The notes under the pieces are model-generated. The model worked only from the letters and a program-made list of their open reading frames with translations. It did not search any database and was not told where the DNA came from. The position numbers were made by a program, and so were the translations under genes. A stretch of DNA of 42,527 nucleotides from a virus, in IMG/VR virus record IMGVR_UViG_3300034073_000825, positions 1 through 42,527 of that record; one strand, written 5' to 3'. Numbering within the stretch: position 1 is the stretch's first letter; each line of letters opens with the position of its first letter. Positions 128 through 42,527 of the stretch are shown here, piece after piece.

Positions 128-141
128 CACACACGACATGA
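1..141 (+). CDS. C-terminal end of the ABC ATPase-GNAT/Mom-like acyltransferase fusion
   Basis: This is the end of the gene that starts at 41417 and crosses the ends of the circular genome. Codon phase is kept: 42401 (equal to base 1) is the first base of a codon, and the frame ends at TGA 139-141 after the residues FKPHTT. The complete protein is 374 residues. This tail is basic and glycine rich (KMKKGGNMQRTGGFREGG), which would suit contact with nucleic acid. See the entry at 41417 for domains. Confidence 0.85.
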   Translation, partial: KQNEWVFLKENRLMGKMKKGGNMQRTGGFREGGVKTFNFEFKPHTT

Positions 142-32089: not shown

Positions 32090-34339
32090 ATGGAATATAC
32101 AAAGTTCTTAGAAACTAAGAAGAAGTCATTTATTGAAAGTGGATTCGAGCCTGATTCACTTAACCATAATCTGTTCGACTTTCAAGAATACATAGTGCGA
32201 ACCGCATTGAGGAAAGGTCGGTTTGCCATATTCGCTGACTGTGGACTTGGTAAAACGTTGATGCAGCTTGAATGGGCTAATAAGGTAGTTGAGAACACTG
32301 GAAAGCCAGTTTTGATATTAGCACCTTTGGCCGTGGTTGGTCAAACAATTTCCGAGGGAGTGAAGTTCGGAATCCGCGTGAATAGGATAGCGGGTTCAAT
32401 TACCGAAGCTGGCATCTACGCCACAAATTACGAGCAACTTGAGAATATAGATGCTTCTGTTTTCATAGGTGTCGTATTGGACGAATCCTCAATACTCAAG
32501 AATTTCACTGGCAAATACAAGAACCTGATAATTGACACGTTCAAAAGCACTCCTTACAAATTGGCGTGTACCGCTACGCCTTCACCGAACGACCTTAACG
32601 AAATCGGTAATCACTCCGAGTTCTTAAATGTATTGGATGCGCAGGATATGCGTTCAAAGTGGTTTGTTCGTGACGAGGGAATGAACAATTATAGGCTGAA
32701 AGGACACGCTAAAAAGGACTTCTACGGATGGATTTCATCATGGGCTACTATGCTGACTAAACCTTCAGATATTGGATTCACAAAGGACGGTTACGAATTG
32801 CCATCGCTGAACTACATCGAGCGTGAAATCTCAACAGATTCACGCGAGAATGGAATGTTGTTTAATCAGACGAACGTAAGTGCTACGGATTTCAATAGCG
32901 AGTTGAGGCTTACATTGATACCAAGAATTGAAGCGGTTGTTGACATTGTAAACAACTCAAATGAACCATTCATTGTGTGGGTCAATCAGAATGAGGAGGC
33001 TGACGAAGTCATTAAATTGATTCCAGATGCCGTTGATGTGAGGGGTTCTGAATCTCCTGACATTAAGACCAAAAAGCTACTTGGATTCGCAAATGGTGAC
33101 TTCCGTGTTTTGGTAACAAAAAAGAAGATAGCTCAATTCGGATTGAATTACCAGCATTGCCGCAACCAAGTATTTGCCGCGCTTGATTTTAGCTTCGAGG
33201 GTTTATATCAGGCAATAAGACGCTCGTACAGATTTGGGCAGAAAGAAACAGTTAACATTTACCTTATTACAACAGACACAATGGAGAACGTAGTAAAATC
33301 AATTGAAAAGAAACAACGCCAGTTTGAAGAAATGCAATCTGAAATGAACAGATACATAAATGGCGATTCATTTGGACTTCTTAACTCTTACGAGTTCCAA
33401 GAGGTTCGCAATGAAAATTACTGGCTAATGAAGGGAGACAGCTGCATTGAGATTTCGCGCATACCTGACAATTCAGTTGACCTGATAGTATTCTCACCGC
33501 CTTTCTCATCATTGTTTACTTACTCGAATTACATTCATGACATGGGCAACAATGACAACCACGATGAGTTCTTTAAACAGTACAAATACCTACTTCATGA
33601 ACTTTACAGGATATTGAAGAACGGACGTTTGATGTGTTGCCATACGAAAGACTTGGCTGTGTACAAAAACTCAAGCGGTTACACTGGTCTTTACGATTTT
33701 ACTGGCGACCACCATAAAGCAGTTGAAAATGTGGGTTTCAAGTATCATTCAAAGATTAACATTTGGACAGACCCCGTTCTTGAAATGCAGAGGACTAAAA
33801 CCCAGAGGCTACTTTACAAACAACTGCGTAAGGATTCAAGTTATACGGGTGTCGGATTGCCTGAGTACGTTACGGTGTTCAGAAAATGGGAAGGTGACGA
33901 ATCCGAATGGACACCGATAAACAATAAGAACGCTTCAAACTTTCCTTTGGACACATGGCAGCAATGGGCATCTCCAGTATGGAACGTTTCAAAAGAGGAC
34001 ATTGAACATTTGGCAGAAATTGAATCACAGTATTGCGTTCAATCTTGGATGGACATTAAACGTACTGACGTTCTTAACAATCGAGAGGGAACTGATTTAG
34101 GAGACGAAAAGCACATTGCACCGCTTCAGCTTTCTGTTATACGTAGATGTGTTCAGATGTGGTCGAATGTGGGTGAAACTGTTTTCACTCCTTTCTTGGG
34201 CATAGGCTCAGAGGTTTACGAATCTGTCAAATTGAAGCGTTACGGAATCGGAATAGAGCTGAAGGATAAGTACTTTGAAACTGCCGTTAAGAACGTGAAC
34301 AAGGCGATTGAATCACAATCGCAAATGGCATTGTTTTAA
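32090..34339 (+). CDS. SNF2-like helicase fused to a beta-class DNA methyltransferase, 749 aa
   Basis: The helicase part has Walker A ADCGLGKT (49-56), DESS (131-134, DExx box), CTATPSPND (160-168, motif III) and QAIRRSYRFGQ (374-384, motif VI). The methyltransferase part has SPPF (469-472, motif IV of an N4-cytosine or N6-adenine enzyme) and then FLGIGS (702-707, SAM loop) near the end, i.e. the beta order IV before I. The region between would recognise the target site. Both active sites look intact. It could unwind and methylate phage DNA during replication, protecting it from restriction. Confidence 0.9.
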   Translation: MEYTKFLETKKKSFIESGFEPDSLNHNLFDFQEYIVRTALRKGRFAIFADCGLGKTLMQLEWANKVVENTGKPVLILAPLAVVGQTISEGVKFGIRVNRIAGSITEAGIYATNYEQLENIDASVFIGVVLDESSILKNFTGKYKNLIIDTFKSTPYKLACTATPSPNDLNEIGNHSEFLNVLDAQDMRSKWFVRDEGMNNYRLKGHAKKDFYGWISSWATMLTKPSDIGFTKDGYELPSLNYIEREISTDSRENGMLFNQTNVSATDFNSELRLTLIPRIEAVVDIVNNSNEPFIVWVNQNEEADEVIKLIPDAVDVRGSESPDIKTKKLLGFANGDFRVLVTKKKIAQFGLNYQHCRNQVFAALDFSFEGLYQAIRRSYRFGQKETVNIYLITTDTMENVVKSIEKKQRQFEEMQSEMNRYINGDSFGLLNSYEFQEVRNENYWLMKGDSCIEISRIPDNSVDLIVFSPPFSSLFTYSNYIHDMGNNDNHDEFFKQYKYLLHELYRILKNGRLMCCHTKDLAVYKNSSGYTGLYDFTGDHHKAVENVGFKYHSKINIWTDPVLEMQRTKTQRLLYKQLRKDSSYTGVGLPEYVTVFRKWEGDESEWTPINNKNASNFPLDTWQQWASPVWNVSKEDIEHLAEIESQYCVQSWMDIKRTDVLNNREGTDLGDEKHIAPLQLSVIRRCVQMWSNVGETVFTPFLGIGSEVYESVKLKRYGIGIELKDKYFETAVKNVNKAIESQSQMALF

Positions 34340-37929: not shown

Positions 37930-38499
37930 ATGGCTAATTGCGTTACATACGGGTGTACAGACGTACCCGAACAGGAGTTAAACGTTTGTGGGGCTACTAT
38001 TGCTGGTGGTGGTCAACAGGCTTTGATTTTCCTTTGCGGTGCTGCAACCGTTACGGCTGAGGATTGGGATAACGACACGCTCGTTTCTCAGGACATTGCC
38101 AACGGATTGGCCGCTTTGTTCAAGAACATCAAAGTGGGTATTGCTGCTGGTTCACCAGTAGACCAAGGCGCAACTTACATCGCGGGTCAACCACCCAAGA
38201 CCGTTACTTACGACTTCACAGGTACATGGATGGACGAGAACGTTAACGAGGTGAACGATGTGAGTTACGATGCTTTGAACGCTGCAAGTGGGTTCGTTGC
38301 CGAGGCGGTTTTTATTAAGTTGGCCGATGACGACACCAAAGGAGAGTTGATATACAACACTTCGGGAGGTATTCTTTTCAAAGGTTCTAAAGTAGTTCCT
38401 GACGACAACACGGATTCGGTTCACTACGAGTATAACCTTTCGTGGAGGTCTAAGGAATCAACCAAACGCACAACACTACCAAGCGGAATATTCTCTTGA
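37930..38499 (+). CDS. major tail protein, 189 aa
   Basis: A beta-rich protein of the right size for a siphovirus tail tube subunit: MANCVTYGCTDVPEQELNVC start, ALIFLCGAATVTAEDW, TYIAGQPPKTVTYDFTGTWM, then GFVAEAVFIKLADDDTKGEL and WRSKESTKRTTLPSG. It is the first gene of the tail/packaging operon, with the strongest-looking promoter of its class. On the circle the chaperone and tape measure genes follow after the packaging genes. The call rests on size, composition and position. Confidence 0.65.
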   Translation: MANCVTYGCTDVPEQELNVCGATIAGGGQQALIFLCGAATVTAEDWDNDTLVSQDIANGLAALFKNIKVGIAAGSPVDQGATYIAGQPPKTVTYDFTGTWMDENVNEVNDVSYDALNAASGFVAEAVFIKLADDDTKGELIYNTSGGILFKGSKVVPDDNTDSVHYEYNLSWRSKESTKRTTLPSGIFS

Positions 38500-39350
38500 T
38501 TTTACTGATAGCTTTTGGCAAGCGGGGTTATGGGTTGATGGCTCATAATCTCGCTTTGTCTATTAAAAAAAGGTCTGATATTCCGATACACCTTTACATA
38601 ACGGACGAACTTCGACCGTATGTAGATGTTTCGATGTTCGCTTCAATCAACCGACTGACTGACGATGACTATAAGACACGCGGAAGGATTGAACCAGCGA
38701 AAGTAAAGACACGAATTTACGAGTTAGGACGTAGAATAGGGCTTGAGAAGTTCCTATACTTGGACGTTGACGGGTTATGTCTGAACCCGTTTGACAAGGT
38801 ATTAGAGGAATTGGATGGCACGACAATCGCAACAGAGATAATCGGCAAAGGTGGAAAGAATGACGTTGTGAATTACTCAATTTGGGCATCAAACGAGGAC
38901 ATTTGGCGCGAGTTCGGACTGAAAGACGATGCTATTCTTTGCGGTGTTCAGTCCAGTTGGATGTACTTCGAGAAATCGACCGTATGCGACAAGTTACAGG
39001 AGTACTTGAATTGGTATATGCTCAAAGGTTTACCGCGTTCAATGGTTTCACATCTATGGGGTGGTGCATTGCCTGACGAATTGCTTTATCAGGGCATCTT
39101 CGCTAAAATGGGAATAGTGCCAAACACGGCTAAAGGGGTTATCTTCTTTGGGCACAAGAAAGCGTTGGACACACCTAAAGAGGTTTCCGAGAAGTACAAT
39201 ATTTTAAGCCTTTACGGTAATGGAGACGGTAATACATTGACCCGTCCAAAATGGTTCAAGCTATACGATTCTGAATTGCGTAAATTAGGAGGTCACTATT
39301 ACCCACATGACAGGGTAATGAAGGATAAGCACGTAAACCGTGGAAATTGA
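38496..39350 (+). CDS. glycosyltransferase-like protein (GT8/GT-A type), 284 aa
   Basis: Starts TTG overlapping the tail protein stop (TTGA). YGLMAHNLALSIKKRSDIPI, then FLYLDVDGLCLNPFDKVLEE, where DVD is the DxD metal site of GT8-like enzymes; later a conserved-looking Asp/Glu stretch (PDELLYQGIF) and a C-terminal GHxK-like GHKK. Fixed between the tail protein and the terminase, it may glycosylate the tail or another virion protein. Donor sugar unknown. Confidence 0.65.
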   Translation: MILLIAFGKRGYGLMAHNLALSIKKRSDIPIHLYITDELRPYVDVSMFASINRLTDDDYKTRGRIEPAKVKTRIYELGRRIGLEKFLYLDVDGLCLNPFDKVLEELDGTTIATEIIGKGGKNDVVNYSIWASNEDIWREFGLKDDAILCGVQSSWMYFEKSTVCDKLQEYLNWYMLKGLPRSMVSHLWGGALPDELLYQGIFAKMGIVPNTAKGVIFFGHKKALDTPKEVSEKYNILSLYGNGDGNTLTRPKWFKLYDSELRKLGGHYYPHDRVMKDKHVNRGN

Positions 39351-40653
39351 AGTAAATAAGGTCTTTTGGGAATGCCTTACCACCGATAAACGCTACGTTC
39401 ATTCCTACGGTGGAAGGGGTAGCGGTAAATCGCACCATGAAGCACTCAACTTTATATTGAGGATTCTTCAACCCGAATTTTTCAGAGGTGTTTTGGTTAG
39501 GGAGGTTTCCGATACTATTCGCGCTTCGCAGTTCCAACTTATCAAGGACTTGATTGAGAAATACGGACTTGGCAACCGTATCATTTCCAACGAAAGTAGG
39601 ATGGAGTTCTATTGCCCATCAACAGGTAATTCAATCATTTCAACTGGGTTAAAAAAGAGCGCGAAAACAGAAACGGCTAAATTCAAGTCAATAGCCGACC
39701 CTACACACGTGTGGATAGAAGAGGCAGAGGAAATCAGCGAGGACGATTTCAATAAGATAGACGGCTCAATAAGAAAGGTAGGCGTAAAATGTCAGATACG
39801 CTTCACGTATAACACGAACATCGAACCCGATCATTGGATTCGTCAGAAGTTCCACAAGATTAAAAGAGAAGATACATACTACATTCATTCCACTTACAGA
39901 GACAACCTTGCAAATCTGAACAAGGAGTATATTCTAAGCCGTGAACAACTGGCAACCTTAGACCCCGAACGATACGCTGTGGAGGTATTGGGCGAGTGGG
40001 GTTCAAAGAAGGTAATTGCACCGTTTGCAAACGCTTACAATCAGGATAAACATTGGAAAGAAACCGCGTACATTCCCGAGATACCTTTAGGCATAAGTTT
40101 TGACTTCAACATCGACCCGTTTGCGTTCATCTATTATCAATTTTGGCTCGATAAGGACGGCTATCATTTTCATGTGTTCGATGAAGAAACGATTGAAGGC
40201 GGAACAATATCCGAAGGCTGCGACCGTATCTTACAGAAGTTCGGGCGTAGGGCTTTGGTAACAGCTAAGATAACGGGTGACTACTCAGGAACGAATAGGA
40301 ACATGATGGAACCCGACAAAGCGAACATCTACCAAACAATACTGAATAGACTTGGTGTCAATAGGTCACAGTTAGACATAAGACCGAACCCGACACATCG
40401 AAATTCACGGGAACAGGTAAACTATCTACTAACTTACTTTCCAGACTTGCGTATCGGAAAAAATTGCCTAAATTTGGAACGTGACCTTCGGACGGTTGAA
40501 ATAAACCCCGATGGAACGATAAGAAAAACAGACCGAAAGAAAGACGAACAGAAGGCCGACCACTTGGACGCTTTCCGATACGCGATAAACACACACGAAA
40601 TTGCAACATGGGTCAAGAACCATCAGAGGTCAACGCCAAACTACGCAAGATAG
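39340..40653 (+). CDS. terL: terminase large subunit, 437 aa
   Basis: ATPase: Walker A GGRGSGKS (24-31) and Walker B VWIEEAEE (124-131). RNaseH-like nuclease: Asp255 in SFDFNID, Asp314 in GDYSG and Asp407/Asp410 in KADHLDAF. The layout is that of PBSX-type (Terminase_3) proteins. It drives DNA into the head and cuts it. The start is a GTG at 39340 that overlaps the glycosyltransferase by 11 bp. The end overlaps the next gene by 46 bp. Confidence 0.95.
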   Translation: MEIEVNKVFWECLTTDKRYVHSYGGRGSGKSHHEALNFILRILQPEFFRGVLVREVSDTIRASQFQLIKDLIEKYGLGNRIISNESRMEFYCPSTGNSIISTGLKKSAKTETAKFKSIADPTHVWIEEAEEISEDDFNKIDGSIRKVGVKCQIRFTYNTNIEPDHWIRQKFHKIKREDTYYIHSTYRDNLANLNKEYILSREQLATLDPERYAVEVLGEWGSKKVIAPFANAYNQDKHWKETAYIPEIPLGISFDFNIDPFAFIYYQFWLDKDGYHFHVFDEETIEGGTISEGCDRILQKFGRRALVTAKITGDYSGTNRNMMEPDKANIYQTILNRLGVNRSQLDIRPNPTHRNSREQVNYLLTYFPDLRIGKNCLNLERDLRTVEINPDGTIRKTDRKKDEQKADHLDAFRYAINTHEIATWVKNHQRSTPNYAR

Positions 40654-40802
40654 GAATCGCATTTAAAGACCTTGGACAGGCGTATATCAACCTTTCACGT
40701 TGGCCAGAGGACTATCGCCAATTCGAGAAGATAAAGGACTTGGAACAGGAACTAAAGAAACTGACAAATGCCACTACCGAAACCGAAACCACAGGAAACT
40801 AA
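40608..40802 (+). CDS. hypothetical helical protein, 64 aa
   Basis: MGQEPSEVNAKLRKIGIAFK begins inside the terminase gene. The protein is one or two amphipathic helices (EKIKDLEQELKKLTN) with a Thr/Glu-rich tail. It overlaps the 46-residue gene downstream by 35 bp. Possibly a packaging accessory, by position. Confidence 0.55.
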   Translation: MGQEPSEVNAKLRKIGIAFKDLGQAYINLSRWPEDYRQFEKIKDLEQELKKLTNATTETETTGN

Positions 40803-40908
40803 ACAGGAGTTCATCAACCGTTGTATGGCCGACCCTATAACGAATAAGGACTTTCCAACGGCAAATCAAAGGTTCGCGGTATGTAACTCGCAATGGAATA
40901 AGAAATGA
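40768..40908 (+). CDS. small phage protein of the FxxRCMxD type, 46 aa
   Basis: MPLPKPKPQETKQEFINRCM, then FPTANQRFAVCNSQWNKK. The pattern E-F-I-x-R-C-M, then N/K-x-F-P-x-x-x-Q-R-x-A-V-C-x-x-Q-W is one I recognise from a short segment found in phages near head maturation or ParB-type genes. Two Cys and the WNKK end are kept. It is coupled to the ParB-like gene by ATGA. Confidence 0.7.
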   Translation: MPLPKPKPQETKQEFINRCMADPITNKDFPTANQRFAVCNSQWNKK

Positions 40909-41420
40909 AAGTTTCGTTATTAAAACCAAACCCGAAGAACCCGCGTATAATTCGCGATGATAAGTTTAAAAAACTTGTTGAGTCATTGCGTTCATTTCCT
41001 GAAATGATGGAAAAGCGGCCTATGGTATGCGTTACGGACGTGGATGGAAAGCTGTACCCATTGGGCGGAAATATGCGCCTACGTGCCATTCAGGAGCTTG
41101 GCATGAAAGAGATACATGATTCATGGGTAGTGCTGGCCGATGATTGGACGGAGGAAAAGCGTTTAGAGTTCACCATCAAGGACAACGCTTCTTTTGGTGA
41201 ATGGAATTACGAGGACCTCGCGAATGAATGGGACGCGGAGCAGTTAAGTGATTGGGGTGTGGATGTGCCGCGATTTGCTGACGAAGATGAATCTATTGCA
41301 AAAAAAATAGAAGAAGTAGAGCGTTGGTATTTGAACATTGAATTTAAGAATGAATCAGACGTTAGCGAATGGTATGACAAGCTAATATCAGAGGGTCTAA
41401 TTTGTAAAATAGTGCAATGA
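40905..41420 (+). CDS. ParB/Srx-like domain protein, 171 aa
   Basis: LKPNPKNPRIIRDDKFKKLV and LYPLGGNMRLRAIQELGMKE carry the ParB N-terminal motifs (PNPxNPR; G-x-x-R-x-x-A). LEFTIKDNASFGEWNYEDLA follows, as in the phage ParB proteins that accompany DNA methylases. No DNA-binding HTH domain is attached. ParB-family domains hydrolyse nucleotides and load on DNA; here, the ATGA coupling to the ABC ATPase-acyltransferase suggests a joint role. Confidence 0.75.
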   Translation: MKVSLLKPNPKNPRIIRDDKFKKLVESLRSFPEMMEKRPMVCVTDVDGKLYPLGGNMRLRAIQELGMKEIHDSWVVLADDWTEEKRLEFTIKDNASFGEWNYEDLANEWDAEQLSDWGVDVPRFADEDESIAKKIEEVERWYLNIEFKNESDVSEWYDKLISEGLICKIVQ

Positions 41421-42527
41421 CATTTCCGAAAACAATAGACGTTAAACTTGAATCTGAAGTTTTCACTAATTTTAGATGTCAAGTAGCTGCGAACAGTTTG
41501 GATATAGACGCTAAGAAAAAATCAAAACATCATCTAAGAATTGAAAACGTCAACATACCGAATGAATGGAATATCGGTTTGATATATGGCGCAAGTGGTT
41601 CTGGTAAAACGACTACTGTAACTAAATTGTTCGGTTCGTCTGTATTTGAAACGATACTTGATGAAGAACAACCTATAATAAACCAATTGCCAAAAGAGTT
41701 CACTTATGAAGAATGTGCTGCGTTGCTAAACGGCATCGGATTAAATTCAGTGCCTTGTTGGATTCGTCCAGTTAAAACATTGTCAAACGGACAAAAAGCA
41801 AGGGCAGAAGCCGTTTTGTTAATGTGTCAAAATAAAGATGTGGTCTTTATTGATGAATGGACTTCTGTTGTTGATAGAACCGTGGCAAAGGCAATGAGTA
41901 TATGCTTGCACAAATACGCAAAGCGAACGAATAAAAAAATAGTTCTGCTGTCGTGTCATTATGATATAATCGAATGGCTTAAACCTGATTGGCTCATTGA
42001 TTGCAATACGCAAAAATTTGAACTTCCAAAGTCGAAGGATTTTTTTTTTACAGAACGCGAACAGCTCACATTCACGATACGAGAAATCGGCAGAGAAAGT
42101 TGGAAGTATTTTAGCAAGTATCACTATTTGAGCGAACTGTTGCCCGGAGGTAAAATATATCTATATGGGCTTTTTGACGGTGACAATCAAATAGGGTTTC
42201 AATGTTTTGCGAATTACACCCCTCACAAATCAGGCACAACGATTATATATCACTCAAACAGAACTGTTATCCATCCCGATTACAACGGACTTGGACTCGG
42301 GATAAAACTCATAAATGAAACGAGCAAATTGATGCAACAAAAATTGAAGTGCAGAATCATGGCCAAATTTTCGTCAATCCCTGTATATAAAGCAATGATA
42401 AAGCAAAATGAATGGGTCTTTTTGAAAGAAAATAGGTTGATGGGTAAAATGAAAAAAGGGGGAAATATGCAGCGAACTGGAGGATTTCGTGAGGGTGGCG
42501 TAAAAACTTTTAATTTTGAATTCAAAC
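41417..42527 (+). CDS. ABC ATPase fused to a GNAT/Mom-like acyltransferase (continues to 141)
   Basis: ABC ATPase part: Walker A GASGSGKT (58-65), signature LSNGQKAR (122-129), Walker B VVFIDEW (142-148) with D-loop SVVD, and H-loop SCHYD (179-183). From about 215 an acyltransferase follows: YFSKYHYLS (231-239) resembles the FxxxHY region of phage Mu Mom, VIHPDYNGLGLG (284-295) is the acetyl-CoA loop of GNAT enzymes, and VYKAMIKQNEW (323-333) a typical end. Mom attaches a carbamoylmethyl group to adenine in DNA, so a DNA-modifying enzyme with an energy-dependent module is plausible. Full length is 374 residues with the part at 1-141. The enzyme's real substrate is unknown. Confidence 0.85.
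   Translation, partial: MTFPKTIDVKLESEVFTNFRCQVAANSLDIDAKKKSKHHLRIENVNIPNEWNIGLIYGASGSGKTTTVTKLFGSSVFETILDEEQPIINQLPKEFTYEECAALLNGIGLNSVPCWIRPVKTLSNGQKARAEAVLLMCQNKDVVFIDEWTSVVDRTVAKAMSICLHKYAKRTNKKIVLLSCHYDIIEWLKPDWLIDCNTQKFELPKSKDFFFTEREQLTFTIREIGRESWKYFSKYHYLSELLPGGKIYLYGLFDGDNQIGFQCFANYTPHKSGTTIIYHSNRTVIHPDYNGLGLGIKLINETSKLMQQKLKCRIMAKFSSIPVYKAMIKQNEWVFLKENRLMGKMKKGGNMQRTGGFREGGVKTFNFEFK
42401..42527. repeat. terminal direct repeat, right copy
   Basis: Identical to bases 1-127. It is part of the coding sequence of the ABC ATPase-acyltransferase gene and marks the overlap by which the circular sequence was opened. Confidence 0.95.

What the first reader, a model, noticed from the sequence alone, without database searches (positions are those of the whole stretch)
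40768..42527. ParB-like protein coupled to an ABC ATPase-Mom-like acyltransferase fusion
Three genes tied by ATGA overlaps encode a 46-aa FxxRCM protein, a ParB/Srx-domain protein and a 374-aa protein that joins a complete ABC ATPase (Walker A, signature, Walker B, H-loop) to a GNAT-type domain with a Mom-like FSKYHY segment. Mom makes a hypermodified adenine in phage Mu. An ATP-driven acyltransferase plus a DNA-loading ParB would be a DNA hypermodification machine, possibly against restriction. The combination with a 46-aa partner is unusual.
Basis: partly seen in the sequence, partly recalled or inferred. Interest (0 to 1): 0.8.

Follow-up and report, generated by a model that had tools for sequence, protein, structure and literature searches.

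The report
ParB-guided ABC-GNAT DNA acyltransferase module
A phage carries a widespread but untested gene pair, a ParB-type DNA-binding protein and an ATPase fused to an acyltransferase, which most likely puts a chemical tag on phage DNA as Mom of phage Mu does, and which sits where Mom sits in at least two other groups of phages.

Summary
The window is a circular phage genome, and the 374-aa ABC ATPase–GNAT gene runs across its ends. It overlaps an upstream ParB/Srx gene (ATGA). The fusion belongs to phrog_11143 (function unknown), a family already predicted to acylate a DNA base (Iyer 2013, cited in PMC7824862), but I found no biochemical test.

New here: (1) nearly every ABC-GNAT has a partner bearing a conserved ~35-aa β-α-β tail. 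This is the C-terminus of ParB (window type), a free 41–75-aa protein (Mu-like phages), or part of one 611-aa ParB-tail-ABC-GNAT chain. (2) ABC-GNAT stands in Mom's place at two unrelated loci. In Arthrobacter phages Shade and EastWest the flanks and the ParB domain match, but Mom is exchanged for ABC-GNAT and the ParB tail is exchanged with it. In Mu-like Pseudomonas phages Com is followed by Mom or by tail-protein, ABC-GNAT and formyltransferase. (3) About 890 plasmid records, phage-plasmids in the two examined, carry ParB, ABC and a GNAT-like protein as separate genes.

The 46-aa protein is a passenger. The GNAT domain is only distantly Mom-like: it keeps Mom's HY pair and an ordinary acetyl-CoA site. 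DNA base acylation is likely but unproven.

The parts
40905..41420 (+). ParB/Srx-domain protein, 171 aa; ParB fold in residues 1 to about 125 (G55 invariant and R58 nearly invariant, ParB GxxR motif)
   Evidence: PHROG ParB families to 4e-16; AlphaFold pLDDT 89.5, Foldseek best hits CTP-binding ParB/Noc, then sulfiredoxin; alignment A3
41325..41420 (+). beta-alpha-beta tail of ParB (residues 141-171), the same module as the free small protein upstream of ABC-GNAT in Mu-like phages
   Evidence: profile-profile probability 98.4%, P 1e-14; best of 60 column shuffles 4.5%; tail-bearing ORF at 77 of 82 viral and 72 of 78 bacterial loci
41417..42527 (+). ABC ATPase-GNAT fusion, 374 aa in all; continues across the circular junction to the stop at window 138-140
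   Evidence: 127-bp terminal repeat, full translation; phrog_11143 E 4e-76
41588..41611 (+). Walker A GASGSGKT (G58-T65)
   Evidence: glycines, S60 and K64 invariant in 36 homologues
41780..41794 (+). ABC signature LSNGQ (122-126)
   Evidence: L122, S123, G125 invariant
41840..41857 (+). Walker B, ending in D146-E147
   Evidence: D146, E147 invariant
41957..41959 (+). H-loop histidine H181
   Evidence: 97% conserved
42023..42527 (+). GNAT domain (residue 203 to end; last four residues at window 128-137)
   Evidence: AlphaFold pLDDT 82; Foldseek hits acetyl-CoA GNATs; Pfam GNAT models match 36-38 of 39 members
42122..42127 (+). H236-Y237, aligned with the HY pair of the Mom family
   Evidence: invariant in the 39-member GNAT alignment; profile alignment with Mom probability 83% vs 1% for shuffled columns
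42275..42301 (+). acetyl-CoA loop PDYNGLGLG (287-295), absent from Mom
   Evidence: P287, G291, G293 invariant
40768..40908 (+). 46-aa FxxRCM protein, ATGA-coupled to ParB; judged a passenger
   Evidence: no family match; beside ParB in only three other close relatives
42401..42527 (.). 127-bp direct terminal repeat, identical to 1-127 (circular map)

Best explanation
The ParB protein and the ABC-GNAT fusion are the two halves of one ATP-dependent enzyme that acylates the exocyclic amino group of a base (most likely adenine) in phage DNA, doing the job that Mom does in phage Mu. ParB binds or clamps the DNA through its ParB/Srx domain and hands it over through its beta-alpha-beta tail to the ABC ATPase. 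ATP-driven dimerisation of the ABC domains opens or flips the base, and the GNAT domain transfers an acyl group from an acyl-CoA, with the conserved H236-Y237 pair at the acceptor site. The mark would protect phage DNA from restriction or mark it. Shown: the architecture, conserved catalytic motifs, near-obligate pairing with the tail, and exchange for Mom at equivalent loci. Inferred: that DNA is the substrate, which base, which acyl donor, the direct tail-ABC contact, and protection from restriction.
For: Mom exchange 1: Arthrobacter phages EastWest and Shade share both flanks (66%, 80%, 46% identity) and the ParB domain (55% over 132 aa), but one carries ABC-GNAT and the other Mom; the ParB tail is beta-alpha-beta in the first and a CPNCG knuckle in the second, and a CPSC knuckle ends ParB beside Mom of phage Appa. 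Mom exchange 2: in Mu-like phages Com (Pfam PF10122 E 9e-21), the translational activator of mom (PMC6483171), precedes either Mom (L139) or tail-protein, ABC-GNAT and formyltransferase; the two Com proteins are 64% identical over 39 aa. Pairing: tail at 77/82 viral and 72/78 bacterial loci; an HMM trained only on the free small proteins gave 36 hits at E<=1 among 6,820 ORFs, and those I could place lie on the gene upstream of ABC-GNAT. Single-chain ParB-tail-ABC-GNAT in a Gemmataceae MAG. GNAT-Mom profile match 83% vs at most 1% for shuffled columns. Often near terminase genes. Same prediction for the family by others (PMC7824862).
Against: No measurement of modified DNA was found for any carrier; the LE3/LE4 paper does not mention modified DNA. 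The GNAT fold is closest to ordinary small-molecule and protein N-acetyltransferases, and Mom 8bv8 is not in the top 50. The window GNAT does not pass the Pfam Mom cut-off. Aeromonas phage PX29 has both Mom and ABC-GNAT, so they are not strict alternatives. The pT24/P12024S/PX29/VmeM-32 branch lacks the tail-bearing gene.
Confidence: 0.62

Rival explanations
1. The fusion is a protein acetyltransferase with a regulatory ABC domain that modifies a host protein (as Rac of phiKMV-like phages acetylates RNA polymerase), recruited to DNA by ParB.
For: GNAT fold closest to protein and small-molecule N-acetyltransferases with a normal acetyl-CoA loop; phage Rac precedent (PMC7824862).
Against: Replaces Mom in two settings with a matched change of ParB tail; ParB partner; HY pair shared with Mom; an ABC ATPase is not needed for protein acetylation.
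Confidence: 0.15
2. Acylation is directed at RNA (tRNA or mRNA), as in TmcA, which also joins an ATPase to a GNAT domain to make N4-acetylcytidine.
For: TmcA is the closest functional analogue known to me of an ATP-driven nucleobase acetyltransferase (own knowledge, not tested here).
Against: ParB/Srx partner and Mom replacement point to DNA; the ATPase is of a different class (ABC versus helicase-like).
Confidence: 0.08
3. ParB is the working part (DNA nickase/NTPase, or a regulator like DndB) and ABC-GNAT protects or regulates it: a restriction or toxin-type conflict module rather than a modification enzyme.
For: ParB/Srx proteins can nick DNA and hydrolyse NTPs (reviewed in PMC12839542); bacterial chromosomes also carry the pair.
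Against: In Mu-like phages and in 19 of 78 bacterial loci ParB is absent and only the tail protein remains, so ParB is dispensable and ABC-GNAT with the tail is the core; no PADLOC system covers the pair.
Confidence: 0.1
4. ABC transporter subunit with an unrelated GNAT, as annotated in many phage records (iron siderophore transporter).
For: Annotation of records such as H8, H9, H14.
Against: No permease gene in the neighbourhoods examined; conserved fusion to GNAT; a ParB partner; NCBIfam transporter models score far below their cut-offs.
Confidence: 0.02

Closest known systems
ABC ATPase-coupled GNAT, predicted DNA base acyl-modification system (Iyer et al. 2013 gkt573, as cited in PMC7824862; Tenacibaculum phage pT24)
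   Same: Same family: pT24 is a direct hit of the window protein (39% identity).
   Different: The window and most relatives add ParB with a beta-alpha-beta tail, which was not found beside the pT24 gene. Whether the 2013 paper already noted ParB could not be read.
Mom of phage Mu (Pfam PF25680, PDB 8bv8)
   Same: GNAT-related; shared HY pair; follows Com in Mu-like phages or ParB in actinophages, as ABC-GNAT does.
   Different: Mom has no ABC domain and lacks the canonical PxxxGxGxG acyl-CoA loop; Pfam Mom does not pass its cut-off on the window GNAT domain.
TmcA / NAT10 (tRNA cytidine acetyltransferase)
   Same: An ATPase joined to a GNAT domain that acetylates an exocyclic base nitrogen at the cost of ATP (own knowledge).
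   Different: Helicase-type ATPase and RNA substrate; not compared by computation here.
Dpd and Dnd systems (DpdB, DndB ParB-superfamily proteins)
   Same: A ParB/Srx-superfamily protein works with a DNA modification enzyme (PMC12839542).
   Different: Different chemistry; no TGT, DpdC or Dnd genes were seen beside the pair.
Phage-plasmid ParB-ABC-GNAT cassette (Acinetobacter and E. coli ~105-110 kb plasmids)
   Same: ParB gene overlapping an ABC ATPase homologous to the window ABC (tblastn 3e-13; HMM 4.6e-33), then a protein with HY and YRGxG motifs.
   Different: ABC and GNAT-like protein are separate genes; ParB has a different C-terminus without the beta-alpha-beta tail.

Membership tests
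ABC ATPase-GNAT family (phrog_11143) | full-length match to the family profile | tested here: met
   E 4e-76 over residues 9-350
ABC ATPase superfamily | Walker A, LSGGQ-type signature, Walker B, H-loop | tested here: met
   near-invariant in 36 homologues; Pfam ABC_tran 2e-6
GNAT superfamily | GNAT fold and acyl-CoA loop | tested here: met
Mom family (PF25680) | match to the family model at the curated cut-off | tested here: not met
   13.2 bits vs cut-off 27.1 for the window; best E 0.0016 among 39 members
Mom family (PF25680) | Mom structure among the best fold matches | tested here: not met
   8bv8 absent from the top 50 PDB hits
Mom family (PF25680) | HY pair and distant profile similarity | tested here: met
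Mom family (PF25680) | modified adenine in virion DNA | not testable with these tools
   needs nucleoside LC-MS
ParB/Srx superfamily | ParB fold and GxxR motif | tested here: met
ParB/Srx superfamily | CTP or ATP hydrolysis, DNA clamp loading or nicking | not testable with these tools
   biochemistry needed

The most novel reading that the evidence does not exclude
ABC-GNAT is the core of a widespread class of ATP-driven DNA base acyltransferases that works with a 35-aa beta-alpha-beta adaptor; the adaptor links it either to a ParB DNA clamp or is a free small protein, and in Mu-like phages a formyltransferase adds a second step, giving a formylated, still unknown base. The adaptor is exchanged for a zinc-knuckle tail when the enzyme is Mom, so the ParB tails specify which modification enzyme is loaded.
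Probability: 0.4. Interest if true: 0.82.

Novelty: new variant of a known kind. Interest (0 to 1): 0.6.

Why it matters
If right, there is an unknown base in the DNA of many phages, prophages and phage-plasmids (including about 110-kb E. coli and Acinetobacter elements), made by an enzyme that spends ATP to acylate DNA. The natural Mom/ABC-GNAT exchange with matched ParB tails gives a direct test of how modification enzymes are loaded on phage DNA, and the formyltransferase found with the Mu-like type predicts a two-step chemistry.

Tried and rejected
FxxRCM protein as a partner: rejected, seen beside ParB only in the window and three close relatives of about 70 loci; no clear homologue in phage records.

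Mom family membership by Pfam and by fold: not met.

MADS Mad3 (PADLOC) match: confined to about 50-90 aa around the ABC signature and Walker B, so not taken as membership.

Formyltransferase as a general part: rejected; its motif follows ABC-GNAT in 55 of 59 Mu-like loci but only 2 of 90 loci of the other set, and none was found in the window.

L062 as a 700-aa ParB fusion: rejected; its extra N-terminus shows no ParB similarity and is probably a spurious upstream extension.

Literature on modified DNA in carriers: LE3/LE4, MetaGPA and fF4 gave nothing on ABC-GNAT. Iyer 2013 itself is not held, so its remarks on ParB are unread. Searching cellular relatives of the window itself was not possible (virus record).

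Full report
What is in the window. The record is a 42,527-base virus genome whose first and last 127 bases are identical, so the map is circular. After the large terminase (39340-40653; Pfam Terminase_3 E 3e-37) come a 64-aa ORF, the 46-aa FxxRCM ORF (40768-40908), a 171-aa ParB/Srx protein (40905-41420) and an ORF from 41417 that runs off the end and, once the circle is closed, stops at window position 140: 374 aa. ParB overlaps both neighbours by ATGA; the fusion is ATGA-coupled to the next ORF at 138. The next ORF but one (365-763) matches DUF5681.

The fusion protein. Residues 50-200 are a complete ABC ATPase: Walker A, LSNGQ signature, Walker B with catalytic E147, SVVDR D-loop and H181, all near-invariant in 36 diverse homologues. 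Residues 203-374 are a GNAT domain with the acyl-CoA loop PDYNGLGLG. AlphaFold gives mean pLDDT 82 and Foldseek finds ordinary acetyl-CoA GNATs; Mu Mom (8bv8, found) is not in the top 50. Pfam GNAT models match 36-38 of 39 family members; the Mom model matches 20 of 39 at E up to 1, best E 0.0016, the window at 13.2 bits against a cut-off of 27.1. A profile built here from 38 GNAT domains aligns to a profile of 11 Mom proteins at 83% probability, with Mom's conserved HY on H236-Y237; 60 column-shuffled Mom profiles reach 1% at most, the reversed profile 3%. So the domain is a canonical GNAT with a distant, real similarity to Mom, not a Mom family member.

The family. The protein is phrog_11143, function unknown. 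tblastn finds 81 phage records, 84 IMG/VR stretches, 432 bacterial or archaeal stretches and, mostly with the ABC half alone, 890 plasmid records. Others have predicted that a GNAT coupled to an ABC ATPase makes an uncharacterised acyl modification of a DNA base, with Tenacibaculum phage pT24 as example (PMC7824862); pT24 is a direct hit here (39% identity). I found no experiment on any member.

The ParB partner and its tail. In the viral loci the gene before ABC-GNAT is nearly always a ParB protein overlapping it by 4 or 19 bases. These ParB proteins end in a conserved stretch of about 32-35 residues with a beta-alpha-beta pattern (WFLNIEFENExECEKWYxxLIEEGLICKIVQ). In the window ParB model the helix 150-162 is confident; the flanking strands are not assigned in the monomer, so the beta-alpha-beta reading rests on the sequence pattern. 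In tblastn against phages the ParB proteins whose match reaches this tail (LE3, LE4, P335, P335ev, Javan420) are those beside ABC-GNAT, while the other ParB proteins stop at about residue 111-137. In 80 Mu-like loci the ParB domain is missing and the tail is a free small protein next to ABC-GNAT (72 of 78). Tail profile and free-protein profile match at 98.4% probability (P 1e-14; best shuffle 4.5%). An HMM from the free proteins alone gave 36 hits at E up to 1 among 6,820 ORFs of the other loci; those I could place lie on the gene upstream of ABC-GNAT. Overall 77 of 82 viral loci and 72 of 78 bacterial loci (53 on proteins of 150 aa or more, 19 free; 63 adjacent, 9 further off) have the tail. 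The viral count uses a model trained partly on the same sequences; the cross-test above and the bacterial count do not. A Gemmataceae MAG (L248) has ParB, tail, ABC and GNAT in one 611-aa chain. The exceptions are the pT24, P12024S, PX29 and VmeM-32 branch and L062. Direct contact of the tail with the ABC domain is inference.

Exchange with Mom. Arthrobacter phages EastWest and Shade have homologous flanks (66%, 80% and 46% identity) and homologous ParB domains (55% over 132 aa), but EastWest has ABC-GNAT and Shade has Mom. EastWest ParB ends in the beta-alpha-beta tail, Shade ParB in a CPNCG knuckle, and the ParB that overlaps Mom in Microbacterium phage Appa in a CPSC knuckle. In Mu-like Pseudomonas phages Com is followed by Mom (L139) or by tail protein, ABC-GNAT and formyltransferase (Komp_PAO1_1); the Com proteins are 64% identical over 39 aa. 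A Com-like zinc ribbon was recognised by motif in 64 of 78 Mu-like ABC-GNAT loci (Pfam check on one). Com activates translation of mom mRNA (PMC6483171, abstract). This exchange is the strongest evidence that ABC-GNAT does Mom's job. PX29 has both, so the two are not strict alternatives.

Two chemistries? A formyltransferase motif (HPSLL) lies within 1.2 kb downstream of ABC-GNAT in 55 of 59 Mu-like loci and in 2 of 90 of the other set; I expect those two to be the Mu-like type records included there (Porphyromonas and Komp_PAO1_1), but did not print them. The window has none. Formylation of the transferred group is a possibility, not a result.

Phage-plasmids. In an Acinetobacter and an E. 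coli ~105-110 kb plasmid with terminase genes, ParB overlaps an ABC ATPase (recognised by the fusion HMM, 5e-33 and 1e-28) and a further gene encodes a protein with HY and YRGxG motifs (profile match to the GNAT domain 86%, two sequences only). Their ParB lacks the tail. Only these two of the 890 records were opened.

Mechanism. Best reading: the ParB domain binds or clamps DNA, the tail recruits ABC-GNAT, ATP-driven ABC closure exposes the base, and the GNAT domain acylates its amino group from acyl-CoA. Architecture, pairing and exchange with Mom are shown; substrate, donor, base and protection from restriction are inferred.

The 46-aa protein occurs beside ParB in three other close relatives only and is best seen as a neighbour, not a component.

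Noticed in passing
window 32090-34339 (+): 749-aa protein joining a DEAD/SNF2-type helicase region to an N6/N4 DNA methyltransferase domain (Pfam N6_N4_Mtase 6e-19, Helicase_C 9e-6), a second possible DNA modification gene in the same phage.
   Followed up: partly
window 38496-39350 (+): 284-aa protein with a glycosyltransferase-like DVDG motif by eye but no match in Pfam, PHROGs or NCBIfam.
   Followed up: partly
L090 6107-6724, L089 6140-6613 and Mu-like loci L141-L220: PurN/Fmt-like formyltransferase follows ABC-GNAT in the Mu-like type (55 of 59 with enough sequence) but hardly ever in the ParB type.
   Followed up: partly
L301, L302 and about 890 plasmid records: Phage-plasmid version of the cassette with ParB, ABC and GNAT-like protein as three genes near terminase.
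   Followed up: partly
L131, L135: Actinophage ParB proteins beside Mom end in a CPxC knuckle instead of the beta-alpha-beta tail.
   Followed up: partly
L248 3281-5116: Gemmataceae MAG with a 611-aa single-chain ParB-tail-ABC-GNAT.
   Followed up: yes
L089 4885-5013: The free tail protein is annotated 'acr candidate' in Porphyromonas phage records; this looks like a misannotation.
   Followed up: partly
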